From NCBI GenBank assembly GCA_017430235.1, contig JAFRNH010000047.1, positions 1 through 36,284 on the forward strand: a DNA stretch of 36,284 nt, in the 5' to 3' direction. The position numbers were made by a program, and so were the translations under genes. Source of the DNA: Paludibacteraceae bacterium (GTDB lineage: Bacteria; Bacteroidota; Bacteroidia; Bacteroidales; Paludibacteraceae). Below the pieces are notes generated by a model. The model made no database searches, was not told the DNA's origin, and saw nothing but the letters and a program-made list of their open reading frames with translations. Below, in pieces: positions 31,268-36,087 of the stretch. Position 1 is the stretch's first letter; each line of letters begins with the position of its first letter.

Positions 31268-31363
31268 TCAGTCTGAACGGCTTAGCCCAGGGCAACGCCC
31301 TATGGTTCATGGAACAGAAAAATTTCATAATGTAGTTATAATTTTCTACATTTGCGTAAACGA
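31268..31363 (+). repeat. REP-like intergenic element, copy B, with promoter-like end
   Basis: A shorter version of copy A with the same order: AGTCTGAACGGCT, AGCCCAGGGCAACGCCCT, GGAACAGAAAAATTT, then TGTAG..CTACATTTG containing TACATTTG (31347-31354). It points towards the structured RNA region and the ART-like gene. Confidence 0.75.
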
Positions 31364-31609
31364 TAGATTTTTAAGTTTAATTCTAATAAAAGAGTTATAA
31401 GAAACAGAAAAAATTTTAAACTAACATATTATTAATCATAGCGTTTGCTATTTATTCAGCACTGCTCCGAAACCTGAGAAATTTCATTAGCAATAGTTGC
31501 GAATAAGTCTGCGAACGTCTACGCTTTGCGTGGACGCGACTTATCAACTATTGCGGGCAATCTCAGGGCCTCTGGAGCGTGGATAAGGATGTGTCCACGC
31601 TTCTTTTTT
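31361..31609 (+). ncRNA. Candidate structured RNA or leader (~250 nt)
   Basis: Between a promoter-like box (31347-31354) and a terminator (31576-31609) lies a rod-like fold. GCTCC (31464-31468) pairs with GGAGC (31574-31578), CCTGAGA (31473-31479) with TCTCAGG (31561-31567), and GCAATAGTTG (31490-31499) with CAACTATTGC (31545-31554). Inside these, ATAAGTC (31503-31509) pairs with GACTTAT (31538-31544), and CGTCTACGC (31516-31524) with GCGTGGACG (31528-31536), closed by TTT. TTGCGGGCAATC (31551-31562) can alternatively pair with GATTGCCCGCAA (31620-31631) beyond the terminator. It may be a free small RNA or a switchable leader of the gene pair that follows. No known family is recognised; ends are estimates. 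Confidence 0.5.
31576..31609 (+). terminator. Terminator hairpin upstream of the ART-like gene
   Basis: AGCGTGGA pairs with TCCACGCT around a 10-nt loop and is followed by TCTTTTTT. It stands 62 bases before the ATG at 31671. The only promoter-like box seen lies upstream of it, so transcripts of the next gene would have to pass this site. Its 5' edge (31576-31578) overlaps the outermost stem of the rod fold, so those two pairings exclude each other locally. Confidence 0.7.
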
Positions 31610-31670
31610 GCCTCAACGTGATTGCCCGCAAGCTGAGTTGAAAAGCAGAACGTCATAAATGTAGGACAAA

Positions 31671-33335
31671 ATGGATTTTATAGTCATCATTGGGGTTTTG
31701 AGTATAGCTTTTGGAGCTATGGGAATCGTATTAATTAGATTAAAAAACAAGCACTTACAGGAAGTTAATAACAATATAGAGAAAACTTATCCTCTTGCAT
31801 ACAACGACTATCTTCGGGGAAATAATATTGTCAAATCCAAAATCAAACACTCTGATTTAAAAAAAATAGCCAGTCGACAAAAAGAAGATTGGGAAGAGGA
31901 AGAGTTTAAACTTCAACAAAAAATAAAAAGAGAAAAAGATATTGAAGATCAATGCAGAAGAATTCAGAAAAATTATCCAAAAGGATTCAAAAAATGGAGG
32001 TTGTATAATAGTAACCCATCATACGACCAAATTGTTTTAAACGAGTGGAAAATAAAAGATTATGAAAGCTTTATCAAATTATCCAAAAAGTTTGTTAAAT
32101 GGGAAGAGGAACAACGCAAATATACTGATGAATGCTACCAAGTATCAAAAAATGCATTAAATGGCTTTGGTCGTTACCATTATGATGTGCCTTTTTTTAA
32201 AATGGATGAAGATGGCAATGAAGTTAGCGGCGAATATAAAGTTTGGCAGTTTTTTGCTGACTCGTATTGTCTTGAATGTGATTTGGATTATACTGGTTTT
32301 GAATCAATTAGAGAGAAAGCAAATATTATTGAAGAATTAAAAAAATGTGAGAGATACTACGCTACCTCTATTTTCGATAGAATAAAAGACTTCCTTATAC
32401 AACTTAGCAAAAGCTACAAATTGTCGATTTATTTATGTTCGAACAATACTGGTTGGTCTGTAGAAAATCTCGAATTTCACTATAAAGAATTGATTGATTT
32501 TCAAATTATTGATGAAATTTATAGTAGTTTATCTAAAGGAACATTCAAATATGATTATTATCCAAGATTGAAAAACAGGCATATTGTTATTATTGATATC
32601 CAAACGAATAATAAGCAATTAAAAACGATTTGTGAGAATATCATAAAAACAAATCAAAAGAAACAGCCACTAATTACTTACATCAGTCTACTTAAAGAAC
32701 TCGACAGAAATGAAATGACATCTTTGATATCTAAGAGGAGAAAACAAGGAAAGGAAGGACAAAAGAGAAAGGAATCTAAAGAAAAGATAGAACTTCATAA
32801 ATTCAAAATAGAAAAAAAGAGAATCTTGGAACTATTACAAAATAATGGCATACAATGTTTTTATCATTTTACGGCAATTGAGAATTTGGATTCTATTAGA
32901 AAACTTGGCGGTTTGTATTCTTGGTGGCATTTAAAACAAAATGCTATTTCTGTTCCTTATTTTGGCGGTTCAGTGTTAGGACAAGAGTTAGATGTGAAAT
33001 TTGGTTTGCAAGATTATGTCAGATTGTCTTTTTGTAATGACCATCCAATGATTTATAGGCTCAGACAGGCTGGTAAACAATTAGCTTTGCTCAAAATTAT
33101 GATAGAAGTAGCCACTTGGAAAGATACTCTTTTTTCTGATGTAAATGCTACAGACAGCAACCATAGTCATGGAGGTTCTTTGTCCGATTTACAAAAAGTG
33201 AATTTTAATGCAGTGAAACGGAATTATGTCAGAAGAGATGATGATGATTTCAAGTTTCATCAGGCAGAGGTTATGGTAAAAAATTTTGTACCAATTGAAT
33301 ATATTATAAATATAGATAGTCCGTTGTTATTATGA
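31671..33335 (+). CDS. Membrane/coiled-coil protein with C-terminal DarT-like ADP-ribosyltransferase domain
   Basis: 554 residues. One N-terminal membrane segment (MDFIVIIGVLSIAFGAMGIVLI) precedes a charged, helix-rich stretch of ~360 residues that I do not recognise. Residues ~392-551 resemble DarT (DUF4433), which ADP-ribosylates DNA bases: CFYHFTAIENLDSIRKLGGLYS (NAD-binding His399 and the GGL turn), LQDYVRLSFCNDHPMIYRL (DarT-typical DYVxxxF..HPM), and FHQAEVMVKNFVPIEYI with candidate catalytic Glu533. DarT itself is ~200 residues, so the long membrane-linked N-terminus is unusual. It overlaps the next gene by ATGA, as toxin and antitoxin genes often do. A/T-rich codon use differs from the housekeeping genes and suggests transfer. 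Domain call is moderately sure; DNA as target is inferred. Confidence 0.7.
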   Translation: MDFIVIIGVLSIAFGAMGIVLIRLKNKHLQEVNNNIEKTYPLAYNDYLRGNNIVKSKIKHSDLKKIASRQKEDWEEEEFKLQQKIKREKDIEDQCRRIQKNYPKGFKKWRLYNSNPSYDQIVLNEWKIKDYESFIKLSKKFVKWEEEQRKYTDECYQVSKNALNGFGRYHYDVPFFKMDEDGNEVSGEYKVWQFFADSYCLECDLDYTGFESIREKANIIEELKKCERYYATSIFDRIKDFLIQLSKSYKLSIYLCSNNTGWSVENLEFHYKELIDFQIIDEIYSSLSKGTFKYDYYPRLKNRHIVIIDIQTNNKQLKTICENIIKTNQKKQPLITYISLLKELDRNEMTSLISKRRKQGKEGQKRKESKEKIELHKFKIEKKRILELLQNNGIQCFYHFTAIENLDSIRKLGGLYSWWHLKQNAISVPYFGGSVLGQELDVKFGLQDYVRLSFCNDHPMIYRLRQAGKQLALLKIMIEVATWKDTLFSDVNATDSNHSHGGSLSDLQKVNFNAVKRNYVRRDDDDFKFHQAEVMVKNFVPIEYIINIDSPLLL

Positions 33336-34156
33336 TGAATATTTTTATAGCAAATAAAAAAAGTAAAGTGGAAAGTATTAAGAAAAAATATCCTAATGCT
33401 TCGATTTTTGACATTACTTCAAAATCAGAATATCCTATTTTACAAAGATTGAGTCCATTTTATCCTCATGGAAATATCCCAGTACCAGGTATGCCAAAAG
33501 AAAAAGCATCGTGTGTCGAAGCGGTGTGGCAGGGGTTGAAAGTATTTGAGGGGTGTGGGGTTGATCTTACAGTATTGCACAATGACACAATGAAAAATAT
33601 CAAACGTACTGTTAAAAAGTTTGGGAAACCTTTAGGACATCAGTACGGAGATAAAATATTAAATTATGCGGATGCTCGTTGGAAAATATATTTGCCAACC
33701 TTTTTGTATATGCTTGAGAATGTTGAATCTGTACAAGAATCGCTTCGAAAAATCAAGGAAAGATTGCAAAAAAAAGATGTGGTATTTCTCGATTATAATA
33801 CAAATTGCAATGTTTCCGATTATTCAAAACCGCTATCGCATGCTTGTCTTGTGAAATTATATCTTGAGGGGAAATATCCAACAAGTGTTAATAGAGCAGA
33901 ATATGAAGCAGAAGGCAAAAAAAATATAGCTTCTTACAATAATGTTGATGAGTTGATTGCCGCTATAGAAGGCCACCCAAAGTTTAACGTGAAAAAACAT
34001 GGTGATTATATCGAAAAAATAAAACACATGTCAAAAATTGATATGACAATCATAATGAAGATGAACGGGAAAAAGAAAGATGCATGGAAAACTATTGTCA
34101 ATGATATTCGACAAAACAAATCCGGTGCAGTCCAATTAACTCTTGATTTCACATGA
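33332..34156 (+). CDS. Partner of the ART-like protein, possible NADAR-like antitoxin (function unproven)
   Basis: 274 residues, not firmly recognised. Residues ~40-75 read LSPFYPHGNIPVPG..ASCVEAVWQGLKVFEG, which recalls the YPFSNFYP..EhxxQxxKF layout of NADAR domains, enzymes that remove ADP-ribose from DNA guanine in DarT-NADAR pairs. LDYNTNCNVSDYSKPLSHACLV (~148-169) is another likely active-site stretch. The C-terminal 60 residues are basic (HMSKIDMTIIMKMNGKKKDAW). The start codon lies inside the stop region of the ART-like gene (ATGATG overlap), implying translational coupling and joint function. The toxin-then-antitoxin order and overlap match darTG. It could also be a second effector. 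Confidence 0.6.
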   Translation: MMNIFIANKKSKVESIKKKYPNASIFDITSKSEYPILQRLSPFYPHGNIPVPGMPKEKASCVEAVWQGLKVFEGCGVDLTVLHNDTMKNIKRTVKKFGKPLGHQYGDKILNYADARWKIYLPTFLYMLENVESVQESLRKIKERLQKKDVVFLDYNTNCNVSDYSKPLSHACLVKLYLEGKYPTSVNRAEYEAEGKKNIASYNNVDELIAAIEGHPKFNVKKHGDYIEKIKHMSKIDMTIIMKMNGKKKDAWKTIVNDIRQNKSGAVQLTLDFT

Positions 34157-34405: not shown

Positions 34406-34428
34406 ACACTCGAAAAATGATGTCTGTA

Positions 34429-34761
34429 ATGGAAAAGAAAGAAATCACAACCATTCAAAACAAAATTTTACTGATTCGTAACCAGCAGGTTATGTTAGAC
34501 CGAGACATTGCTGAATTGTATGGAGTGGAGACCAAAATCTTGAACCAAGCGGTAAAAAGAAGTGCCGAAAGGTTTCCTGATAGATTTATGTTTCAATTGA
34601 CCAAAGAAGAACAGTCTGAAATCGATTCTTCTTCTTTAAGGTCACAATTTGTGACCTTAAAGAATGATACGGTGAATTTAAGAGGCAAACATTCTAAGTA
34701 TTTGTCTTATGCTTTCACAGAGCAAGGTGTTGCGGGTTCCTACAATTTTGCTTTCCGTTGA
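34429..34761 (+). CDS. Short ORF6N-domain protein (array copy 1)
   Basis: 110 residues from ATG 34429 (MEKKEITTIQ), the start that aligns with the other copies; ATGs at 34417 and 34420 would be nearly leaderless. The ORF6N DNA-binding domain, common in phage and mobile-element proteins, is complete: IQNKILLIRNQQVMLDRDIAELYGVETK..LNQAVKRSAERFPDRFMFQLTKEE, and then LRSQFVTLKND and YAFTEQG. After FTEQGVA the frame switches to GSYNFAFR and stops, while the full-length copy continues for ~190 residues. This might be a deliberate short form (DNA-binding domain alone, a natural competitor) or a truncated gene. It is the only copy behind a promoter. It diverges from copies 2-4, which are nearly identical to each other. 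Confidence 0.75.
   Translation: MEKKEITTIQNKILLIRNQQVMLDRDIAELYGVETKILNQAVKRSAERFPDRFMFQLTKEEQSEIDSSSLRSQFVTLKNDTVNLRGKHSKYLSYAFTEQGVAGSYNFAFR
34632..34664 (+). repeat. 33-nt perfect palindrome inside ORF6N copy 1
   Basis: TTCTTTAAGGTCACAA-T-TTGTGACCTTAAAGAA, 16-bp arms with a single central base. The core encodes RSQFVTL, but the outer arms pair as well, beyond what the motif requires. Confidence 0.95.
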
Positions 34762-34780
34762 ACAATGAGGGATTTATAGT

Positions 34781-34813
34781 GAAATGGAAGTCGCAATATG
34801 CGACTTCCATTTC
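34781..34813 (+). repeat. Stem-loop in the 3' tail of ORF6N copy 1
   Basis: GAAATGGAAGTCGCA-ATA-TGCGACTTCCATTTC, a perfect 15-bp stem ~20 bases after the stop, followed by CTCCTAAAATGTTTTTTT. It may terminate transcription, although the T run starts ~9 bases after the stem, or be a recombination or repeat end. Confidence 0.85.
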
Positions 34814-34862
34814 TCCTAAAATGTTTTTTTGACCATGTTTTAACTAAAAACCCATAAGAAAA

Positions 34863-35747
34863 ATGACACCAATAGAAGTAAAAAACATCCAAAACAAAAT
34901 TTTACTGATTCGTAACCAACAGGTTATGATAGATAGAGACATTGCGGAATTATATGGAGTGGAGACCAAAGCCTTGAACCAAGCGGTAAAAAGAAATGCC
35001 GAAAGGTTTCCTGATAGATTTATGTTTCAATTGACGAAGGAAGAGGCTTCTTGTTATTTTTCAAGGTCACAAATTGTGACCTTGAAAAATAACACAGATA
35101 GTCGAGGCAAAAATATAAAGTACTTGCCTTATGCTTTCACAGAGCAAGGTGTTGCAATGTTATCATCAGTGTTGCGTAGTCCAACAGCCGTTCAAGTAAG
35201 TATCAAGATAATGGACGCTTTCGTCGCCATGCGCAAATTTCTTTTGTCGAATGCGCAGATCTTTCAGCGACTCGACTCGCTTGAAATTCATCGCATAGAA
35301 TCCGATAAGCGTATTGACGAACTATTCACACGAATGGACCGATATAAAATTGATGACACCCAAGGCATCTTCTTTCAAGGTCAGATATTCGATGCATACG
35401 CTAAATTCCAGAGTTTTATCGCACAAGCCCAGAAAGAGATTGTGCTGATAGACAACTATGTGGATATCACAGTGCTCGAACGCCTTTCGACCAAGAACAA
35501 TGGCGTGGACGTCATCATCTACACCTTGCCCAACACGAGACTGACAACGCAGGATGTCCGCAGTTTCAATGCGCAGTATCCTACACTTACGGTAAGACAC
35601 ACCACATCGATGCATGACCGCTTTCTGATTATCGATAACAGTATCCTTTATCACCTCGGTGCTTCACTCAAAGACCTTGGTAGGAAATGCTTCGCCTTCG
35701 AACTGTTTGATGCGAGTTTCATATCTGATATTTTAGACAAAGTTTAA
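34863..35747 (+). CDS. ORF6N-domain protein with C-terminal PLD-like domain (array copy 2, full length)
   Basis: 294 residues. Residues ~8-95 are the ORF6N domain (IQNKILLIRNQQVMIDRDIAELYGVETK..FPDRFMFQLTKEE..RSQIVTLKNN). Then come YLPYAFTEQGVAMLSSVLRS and a helical linker (~105-165, LDSLEIHRIESDKRIDELF). Residues ~170-294 form a phospholipase-D-like half domain: KEIVLIDNYVDITVLERLS, SMHDRFLIIDNSILYHLGASLKDLG, with the single HxxxxxxD (HDRFLIID) of this subgroup. ORF6N-PLD proteins are common in Bacteroidetes; their role is unknown, but DNA binding plus a nuclease-like fold suggests defence or mobile-element biology. The 3' two thirds appear richer in G/C than the 5' part, as if two pieces had been joined. 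It follows copy 1 by ~100 bases. Confidence 0.85.
   Translation: MTPIEVKNIQNKILLIRNQQVMIDRDIAELYGVETKALNQAVKRNAERFPDRFMFQLTKEEASCYFSRSQIVTLKNNTDSRGKNIKYLPYAFTEQGVAMLSSVLRSPTAVQVSIKIMDAFVAMRKFLLSNAQIFQRLDSLEIHRIESDKRIDELFTRMDRYKIDDTQGIFFQGQIFDAYAKFQSFIAQAQKEIVLIDNYVDITVLERLSTKNNGVDVIIYTLPNTRLTTQDVRSFNAQYPTLTVRHTTSMHDRFLIIDNSILYHLGASLKDLGRKCFAFELFDASFISDILDKV
35052..35094 (+). repeat. 43-nt perfect palindrome inside ORF6N copy 2
   Basis: The arms are 21 bases each with one central A: the left arm ends ..TTTTTCAAGGTCACAA and the right begins TTGTGACCTTGAAAAA... Compared with copy 1, the arm reads TTCAAGG/CCTTGAA instead of TTTAAGG/CCTTAAA, so both sides changed together. Confidence 0.95.
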
Positions 35748-35766
35748 CTAAAAACCCATAAGAAAA

Positions 35767-36087
35767 ATGATGCCAATAGAAGTGACAACCATCCAAAACA
35801 AAATTTTACTGATTCGTAACCAACAGGTTATGATAGATAGAGACATTGCGGAATTGTATGGAGTGGAGACCAAAGCCTTGAACCAAGCGGTAAAAAGAAA
35901 TGCCGAAAGATTTCCTGATAGATTTATGTTTCAATTGACGAAGGAAGAGGCTTCTTGTTATTTTTCAAGGTCACAAATTGTGACCTTGAAAAATAACACA
36001 GATAGTCGAGGCAAAAATATAAAGTACTTGCCTTATGCTTTCACGGAACAAGGGGTTGCGTGTTCCTACAATTTTGCTTTCCGTTGA
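35767..36087 (+). CDS. Short ORF6N-domain protein (array copy 3)
   Basis: 106 residues, starting 19 bases after the stop of copy 2. The ORF6N part is almost identical to copy 2 (..RSQIVTLKNNTDSRGKNIKYLPYAFTEQGVA) but the frame then reads CSYNFAFR and stops, exactly as in copy 1 (GSYNFAFR). The C-terminal PLD-like domain is missing. Sharing the same ending and 3' tail with the otherwise diverged copy 1 means that the truncation point is not a random mutation but a junction copied between units. It is either expressed as a short form or a remnant of recombination. Confidence 0.75.
   Translation: MMPIEVTTIQNKILLIRNQQVMIDRDIAELYGVETKALNQAVKRNAERFPDRFMFQLTKEEASCYFSRSQIVTLKNNTDSRGKNIKYLPYAFTEQGVACSYNFAFR
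35956..35998 (+). repeat. 43-nt perfect palindrome inside ORF6N copy 3
   Basis: Same sequence and placement as in copy 2, shifted by 904 bases: 21-base arms around a central A. Confidence 0.95.

What the first reader, a model, noticed from the sequence alone, without database searches (positions are those of the whole stretch)
31361..34156. Structured RNA or switchable leader in front of a DarT-like / NADAR-like gene pair
The sequence shows a promoter-like box, a ~115-nt rod of nested perfect stems, a terminator hairpin and then two overlapping genes. The only promoter-like box lies before the terminator, so the toxin-like gene seems to depend on read-through. A 12-bp inverted repeat (31551-31562 with 31620-31631) encloses the terminator, which could allow switching. 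Known DarT systems are two-protein modules; an RNA element in front would be new. Alternatively the RNA is itself a third component.
Basis: partly seen in the sequence, partly recalled or inferred. Interest (0 to 1): 0.85.

Follow-up and report, generated by a model that had tools for sequence, protein, structure and literature searches.

The report
Shared RNA switch before defence genes
The folded RNA in front of this toxin-like gene pair belongs to a large, apparently uncatalogued family of gene-leader RNAs in Bacteroidia bacteria that look like on/off switches placed ahead of DNA-defence genes and cell-surface genes.

Summary
At 31438-31631, between a Bacteroidota promoter box (TACATTTG, 31347-31354) and the ATG at 31671, lies a strongly covarying RNA: hairpin H0, long-range helices P1 and P2, a rod, a terminator whose 5' arm contains the P1 3' strand, and a post-terminator strand (P3) that can replace P2. 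It is not specific to DarT. A covariance model matches 305 of 358 genomes of the family and 47 of 149 drawn from the order, own genome included. In 134 of 138 testable loci the longest downstream frame is on the same strand, with its first ATG 200-270 nt after the model start in 98 of 134. Loci fetched with an exact 20-mer mostly precede DNA methyltransferase/R-M genes; in distant loci 28 of 47 genes look secreted. Of 8 relatives of the DarT protein, none shows it; 6 have enough upstream sequence to tell. No Rfam family reaches its gathering score on it. Best reading: an unrecognised class of multi-state transcription-attenuation leader, here acquired by a DarT-NADAR-type operon. Trigger and direction of control are unknown. 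'Switchable leader' is supported; 'third component of DarT' is not.

The parts
31347..31354 (+). Bacteroidota -7 promoter box TAnnTTTG (TACATTTG); start of transcription inferred near 31359
   Evidence: over all loci a TAnnTTTG box lies within 150 nt upstream in 53 of 77, 16 of 28 and 30 of 41, against 5.8, 2.8 and 3.9 in base-shuffled upstream sequence; box position -12 to -5 from passages of PMC9723704
31420..31459 (+). conserved 5' box: ACTAACATATTATTAATC, hairpin H0, then UUUAUUC
   Evidence: most conserved part across copies
31438..31451 (+). hairpin H0 AUAGC-GUUU-GCUAU
   Evidence: closing pair swaps U-A to A-U in 2 of 12 genus copies and in distant copies (AU 18, UA 5 of 28); absent from the minimum-energy fold at several transcript lengths in the window
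31464..31468 (+). P1 5' strand (pairs with 31574-31578): proposed antiterminator
   Evidence: all 6 modelled P1 pairs show changes on both sides
31473..31479 (+). P2 5' strand CCUGAGA (pairs with 31561-31567)
31490..31554 (+). rod: 31490-31499/31545-31554, 31503-31509/31538-31544, 31517-31524/31528-31535
31500..31507 (+). rod 5' internal segment CGAAUAAG, complementary to the box UUUAUUC (alternative helix P0)
   Evidence: forms first in prefix folds; pairing depends on the partner in the distant set, not significantly in the near set
31561..31567 (+). P2 3' strand UCUCAGG
31574..31609 (+). intrinsic terminator GGAGCGUGGA/UCCACGCUUC plus U6; its 5' arm contains the P1 3' strand 31574-31578; 31582-31587 and 31593-31600 can also pair with rod 3' strand 31540-31545 and 31528-31535
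31551..31562 (+). P3 5' arm UUGCGGGCAAUC
   Evidence: partner-swap z 15.4 (near), 6.6 (far); 10.0 and 4.2 after clustering
31620..31631 (+). P3 3' arm GAUUGCCCGCAA, after the terminator
31671..33335 (+). 554-aa protein with C-terminal DarT domain (residues 398-548)
33332..34156 (+). 274-aa DUF6939 / NADAR-DarT1-like protein

Best explanation
31438-31631 is a copy of a widespread cis-acting leader RNA of Bacteroidia that works as a transcription-attenuation switch by successive strand exchange. Shown by sequence: it lies in the 5' leader, it is held by covarying helices H0, P1, P2 and rod, and it carries a terminator whose 5' arm overlaps the P1 3' strand. Predicted by folding growing transcripts: box-rod5 (P0) forms first and is replaced by the rod; P1/P2 then form. 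In the window P1 and the terminator are about 2 kcal/mol apart (terminator favoured) when the U-run is made. After read-through, P3 replaces P2. Inferred: P1/P2 is the read-through (ON) state; holding P0, or destabilising P1/P2, lets the terminator form (local hairpin, or rod 3' strand paired with the terminator region) and turns the gene OFF. An unidentified ligand, protein, RNA or polymerase-speed signal sets the ratio. The element is a portable regulator of accessory genes (R-M/defence, surface, polysaccharide-modifying); here it governs a DarT-NADAR-type operon.
For: Covariation: A2, 81 rows, 94.0% of cells paired, 37 of 48 pairs changed on both sides, score 0.541 against 0.207 shuffled and 0.06-0.09 slid; A4, 28 distant rows, score 0.597 against 0.183. 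Position: same strand in 134 of 138; ATG at 200-270 nt in 98 of 134; longest upstream frame on the same strand in only 33 of 65 and 14 of 22. Promoter boxes upstream, and TAnnTTTG in only 1 of 146 just after the element. P1/terminator overlap of at least 3 nt in 54 of 81. Prefix folding in the window and in 145 loci: P0 first in 66/76 and 63/69; P1 formed in 76/76 and 68/69; P2 lost to P3 in 62/76 and 16/69. Partner-swap tests on representatives under 80% identity: far set n=42, P0 z 7.7, rod3 x T z 8.6, P3 z 4.2; near set n=16, P3 z 10.0, rod3 x T z 5.1; four negative controls z -0.9 to 1.3.
Against: No expression data. 20 of 81 loci show no P1/terminator overlap and 3 more gave no hairpin by my finder. 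At the U-run P1 is kept in the minimum-energy fold of 61 of 76 near and 56 of 69 far loci, so a default OFF state is not predicted; in the window itself the terminator wins instead, and at one length (31632) P0 reappears with only part of the rod. P0 is not significant in the near set after clustering (z 1.6, n=16), where the box hardly varies. In 28 of 69 distant loci the local terminator fold is weaker than -5 kcal/mol (these were counted only where the rod3 duplex is stronger than -12), and no U-run of four was found in 10 of 76 and 7 of 69. P3 forms in only 17 of 69 distant loci. The rod3-terminator helix, though partner-dependent, never appears in the prefix folds (0 of 76, 0 of 69). Gene calls are mechanical.
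Confidence: 0.72

Rival explanations
1. A metabolite or second-messenger riboswitch: the P1-P2-rod core binds a small molecule, and gene choice (defence plus surface) reflects that signal. This would be one way of running the attenuator above.
For: Compact covarying core with conserved unpaired positions at the P1/P2 junction, terminator switching, many copies per genome (up to 17 matches in one genome).
Against: No common metabolic theme among downstream genes; no Rfam riboswitch match.
Confidence: 0.3
2. A protein-dependent antitermination leader (like RfaH-ops, UpxY or LoaP sites): a factor binds the near-invariant H0 box and carries RNA polymerase through the terminator.
For: The 5' box is the most conserved part and occurs alone, without the rod, directly before two DUF1016 genes; RfaH-type regulation of surface genes is recalled, not tested.
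Against: Only one NusG-domain protein was found in the own genome (genome 88% complete), so a NusG paralogue is not evident; other factor types are not excluded and other genomes were not searched for it.
Confidence: 0.25
3. Third component of the DarT-NADAR system (RNA antitoxin or guide).
For: It lies directly in front of the pair.
Against: Not found at any of 8 relatives of the DarT protein, 6 of them with enough upstream sequence; present before unrelated genes.
Confidence: 0.03
4. Mobile palindromic repeat (MITE/REP-like) that happens to lie upstream of genes.
For: Multi-copy in genomes, sometimes near contig ends; in G011 a DUF1016 gene lies between two copies of the 5' box; own copies C12 and C92a are 91% identical.
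Against: Fixed strand and spacing to the downstream ATG, compensatory changes, other own-genome pairs 36-73% identical.
Confidence: 0.04

Closest known systems
Transcription-attenuation leaders and terminator-type riboswitches in general
   Same: promoter, structured RNA with mutually exclusive antiterminator and terminator, then the gene
   Different: no match to any of 4227 Rfam 15 families at gathering score in the window or 16 near loci apart from a tRNA elsewhere, nor at E<=1 in 20 distant loci apart from a tRNA; stands before many unrelated accessory genes
RfaH/ops (JUMPstart), UpxY and LoaP antitermination leaders (recalled; search listing only)
   Same: leader element shared by surface or accessory operons, with a conserved hairpin
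   Different: no NusG paralogue seen in the own genome; a large covarying rod and P1/P2 core is present
Flavo-1 RNA (RF01705) and other Bacteroidetes motifs of Weinberg 2010 (PMC2864571, passages)
   Same: structured RNA in Bacteroidetes
   Different: no Rfam hit to Flavo-1, Bacteroidales-1 or others even at E<=1 on 20 distant loci
DarT1-NADAR (DarTG1) toxin-antitoxin (PMC11543638, passages)
   Same: DarT-domain gene overlapping a NADAR-type gene
   Different: about 400 residues before the DarT domain; second protein is DUF6939-type with only a modest NADAR-DarT1 score; RNA leader in front

Membership tests
Transcription-attenuation leader RNA | Structured RNA supported by compensatory changes | tested here: met
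Transcription-attenuation leader RNA | Lies between promoter and start codon, same strand, regular spacing | tested here: met
Transcription-attenuation leader RNA | Terminator mutually exclusive with an upstream helix | tested here: met
   window: P1 3' strand 31574-31578 is inside the terminator 5' arm; at least 3-nt overlap in 54 of 81 loci, none in 20
Transcription-attenuation leader RNA | Regulated read-through | not testable with these tools
   needs RNA 3'-end mapping or in vitro transcription
Known Rfam RNA family | Match at gathering score | tested here: not met
   Searches (gathering; E<=10) gave five matches far below gathering; (E<=1) only a tRNA
Metabolite riboswitch | Ligand binding | not testable with these tools
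   none
Metabolite riboswitch | Downstream genes share a metabolic theme | tested here: not met
   R-M, surface, acyltransferase, lipoprotein genes
NusG-paralogue (RfaH/UpxY/LoaP) antitermination | A specialised NusG paralogue in the genome | tested here: not met
   one PF02357 match in the own genome, 88% complete; other genomes not searched
DarT1-NADAR toxin-antitoxin | DarT and NADAR domains in an overlapping gene pair | tested here: met
   PF14487 and PF22397 over cut-off; NCBIfam toxin_DarT equivalog not reached, 49.8 of 150 bits
DarT1-NADAR toxin-antitoxin | Toxicity and its reversal | not testable with these tools
   none
MITE/REP repeat | Orientation and spacing independent of genes, near-identical copies | tested here: not met
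   (one own-genome pair at 91% is the exception)

The most novel reading that the evidence does not exclude
One ancient Bacteroidia RNA switch class acts as a common control layer for the cell's outward-facing and immune genes (R-M, helicase-type defence, DarT, adhesin-like and secreted proteins, SusC-like receptors, surface-modifying acyltransferases), read out by three strand exchanges and set by a single unknown signal, so that defence and surface are switched, or diversified between cells, together.
Probability: 0.3. Interest if true: 0.95.

Novelty: new variant of a known kind. Interest (0 to 1): 0.85.

Why it matters
How Bacteroidia control their many R-M and defence operons is, to my knowledge, poorly understood. 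A single, strongly covarying RNA leader matched in 305 of 358 genomes of one family, and without an Rfam model as searched here, would give a directly testable regulon of defence and surface genes, a new RNA fold with several alternative pairings, and perhaps a new ligand or factor. It also explains the finding without invoking a new toxin-antitoxin component.

Tried and rejected
RNA as third DarT component: rejected. The first test used loci with about 1.5 kb of flank, which for some genes did not reach the start; I repeated it on longer stretches: 0 of 8 at E<=1, with 2 of 8 too near a contig end to judge. Unique rod: rejected. Rfam families: none at gathering; E-value mode gave only weak or tRNA matches. 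tRNA/tmRNA in the window: none. Phage or plasmid origin: no blastn match of the element in plasmids or phages, and no exact 20-mer in IMG/VR. NusG paralogue: not seen in the own genome. Plasmid hits to the DarT protein (8 records) cover only 28-30% of it, the C-terminal domain; phages none. The rod 3'-strand x terminator helix depends on its partner but never wins in minimum-energy prefix folds (0 of 145), so it stays a hypothesis. Literature: nine answered searches over open-licence PMC papers listed nothing that describes this leader. PMC9723704, PMC8040213, PMC2864571 and PMC11543638 were seen only as passages (plus the outline and abstract of the first); other papers only as search listings. 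Subscription journals and preprints were not searched.

Alignments A2, A4, A5 and A8 were fitted to model R1. The 40 loci of A5 were picked by me from the printed, capped lists; A4 is the loci those searches and chose to hold (28). Some rows are the same contigs (150 rows, 147 distinct, 62 representatives under 80% identity). One search scored at most 7 candidates per genome, at most 18. Of 81 A2 matches, 8 gave no downstream ORF and were dropped from the gene tally; in A5 2 of 41 rows and in A4 1 of 28 gave none. In the swap tests 5 of 150 rows were left out for short segments, in the clustered version 4 of 62.
Full report
Observation. The window region folds far better than shuffles (z -5.9). 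The first gene ends in a DarT domain and the second is DUF6939/NADAR-like.

The element is not unique. BLAST of 31420-31680 against the own genome gave four further places. In the genus, 12 of 16 genomes, own included, had a match. I read 20 genus-level places with their surroundings. Most full copies stand upstream, on the same strand, of genes such as DNA methyltransferases, HsdM, type III and type IIG R-M genes, a DEAD/HNH helicase or a PLD-type helicase (names by reading the sequence). Exceptions: own_C92a faces a convergent gene, own_C92b is a fragment, and two places (G011a, G010) have only the 5' box, directly before a DUF1016 gene.

Structure. From 12 copies I built model R1. All six P1 pairs and five of seven P2 pairs show changes on both sides. 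R1 found the element in each of the 80 loci fetched by the 20-mer (81 matches, four of them cut off or short), and there the structure scores 0.541 against 0.207 for shuffles and 0.06-0.09 for slid partners. In 28 loci from the order and phylum searches it scores 0.597 against 0.183. With the caveat that these alignments were fitted to the model, this is an RNA constraint.

Distribution. R1 matched 305 of 358 genomes of the family at E<=0.01 (27 of 33 genera; at most 7 candidates scored per genome), 47 of 149 drawn from the order at E<=1e-4 and 11 of 148 drawn from the phylum at E<=0.001, the ten others all of the same class; the own genome is in each count. The exact 20-mer was not found in IMG/VR.

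Position. Of 150 aligned loci, 138 had at least 500 nt downstream. The longest frame there is on the same strand in 134 of 138 (73/74, 24/24, 37/40), and its first ATG is 200-270 nt from the model start in 98 of 134 (61/73, 14/24, 23/37). The longest upstream frame is on the same strand in 33 of 65 and 14 of 22. A TAnnTTTG box lies within 150 nt upstream in 53 of 77, 16 of 28 and 30 of 41, against 5.8, 2.8 and 3.9 for base shuffles; within 60 nt after the element it occurs in 1 of 146.

Genes. In the 20-mer set, 73 of 81 matches gave a downstream ORF. Pfam matched N6_N4_Mtase in 17, N6_Mtase in 14, Eco57I in 11, EcoRI_methylase in 10, HSDR_N_2 in 5, C5 DNA_methylase in 4 and MethyltransfD12 in 4 of 73; families can overlap within a protein. 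By BLAST clustering, 53 of 73 fall in eight clusters that I assign to DNA methyltransferases from these hits and motifs; the assignment is mine. Of the 66 upstream neighbours scanned, no DNA methyltransferase family is among those shared by two or more members; YhcG/DUF1016 is the commonest (6 of 66); 62 of the 87 families found were not listed. From 20 family-level loci that I picked from the printed list, 19 ORFs were scanned: methyltransferase, Mrr or ResIII domains appear beside acyltransferases, BspA-type LRR and secreted proteins. In 47 downstream proteins from the order and phylum loci only a few R-M families appear, and 28 of 47 have signal-peptide-like N termini by a crude rule, against 8 of 73 and 7 of 19 in the other sets. 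The own-genome copy on C50 stands before a lipoprotein-like gene and a 555-aa secreted-looking protein.

DarT link. Of 200 family genomes searched with the 554-aa protein, 9 including the own one had a match. R1 found no element at the 8 others, first with short flanks, then at E<=1 on longer stretches. Six of the 8 have at least 880 nt upstream of the first ATG; two lie 180-189 nt from a contig end and cannot be judged. L260 holds a long DarT-type gene followed by a NADAR-like gene (by reading), without the leader. L263 matches only the N-terminal part. So the leader is a portable module and not a fixed part of the DarT system.

Switching. In the window, folding of growing transcripts from 31361 gives P0 (12 pairs) at 31520, the rod at 31560, P1 and P2 at 31580, the terminator instead of P1 at 31604, and P3 instead of P2 from 31628; at 31632 alone P0 returns with part of the rod, and H0 comes and goes. 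With P1+P2 forced the RNA to 31609 is -70.5 kcal/mol, with the terminator forced -72.7. In 145 loci P0 comes first in 66/76 and 63/69, then rod, P1 and P2; P1 is kept at the U-run in 61/76 and 56/69; P2 gives way to P3 in 62/76 near but only 16/69 far loci. Swapping partners between loci, on representatives under 80% identity, supports rod3 x terminator region (z 5.1 near, 8.6 far) and P3 (z 10.0 near, 4.2 far) in both sets, and P0 in the far set only (z 7.7; near z 1.6, not significant). Four negative controls lie between z -0.9 and 1.3. These are minimum-energy calculations, not kinetics.

Mechanism. The best-supported reading is an attenuator with an antiterminator (P1/P2) and a terminator that share a strand, preceded by an early competitor (P0) and followed by a further helix (P3). 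Which state dominates in cells, and what shifts it, is unknown. A ligand, a factor binding the conserved H0 box, or polymerase speed remain open. A NusG paralogue was not found in the own genome.

Novelty. No Rfam 15 family reached its gathering score in the window or, on the element, in 16 near loci; E-value searches of the window element and 20 distant loci gave only weak or tRNA matches. Nine literature searches listed no description of it. As a kind, attenuator leaders are known; the class, its breadth and its attachment to defence and surface genes appear new.

Noticed in passing
L033 (G011), L040 (G010), L006/L007 (own genome); 11 of 81 A2 loci: DUF1016/YhcG-like nuclease genes recur beside the leader: 11 of 81 A2 loci have a tblastn match, 9 of them upstream on the same strand, one downstream, one upstream on the other strand. 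In G011 the gene lies between two near-identical ~60-nt copies of the leader's 5' box, as if inserted or duplicated there.
   Followed up: partly
31671-32800: The N-terminal ~370 residues of the window DarT protein recur in G008 (L263) in a 615-aa protein with a different, phosphoribosyltransferase-like C terminus (by reading), so this region may be a separate module.
   Followed up: no
34417-36087: Three tandem ORF6N genes; the first and third end in the same sequence (SYNFAFR) where the middle one continues; the middle one matches PADLOC candidate PDC-S05.
   Followed up: no
31270-31320: Short G+C-rich inverted sequence (GCCCAGGGCAACGCCCTATGG) just after the GNAT gene, possibly its terminator or a REP-like repeat.
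   Followed up: no
L269 3432-3616 (own genome C50): A fifth full-length own-genome match precedes a lipoprotein-like gene and a 555-aa secreted-looking protein that may be MACPF-like (by reading).
   Followed up: partly
G373, G403, G435: Genomes with 17, 14 and 13 matches, some near contig ends; five G373 copies compared are 66-81% identical.
   Followed up: partly
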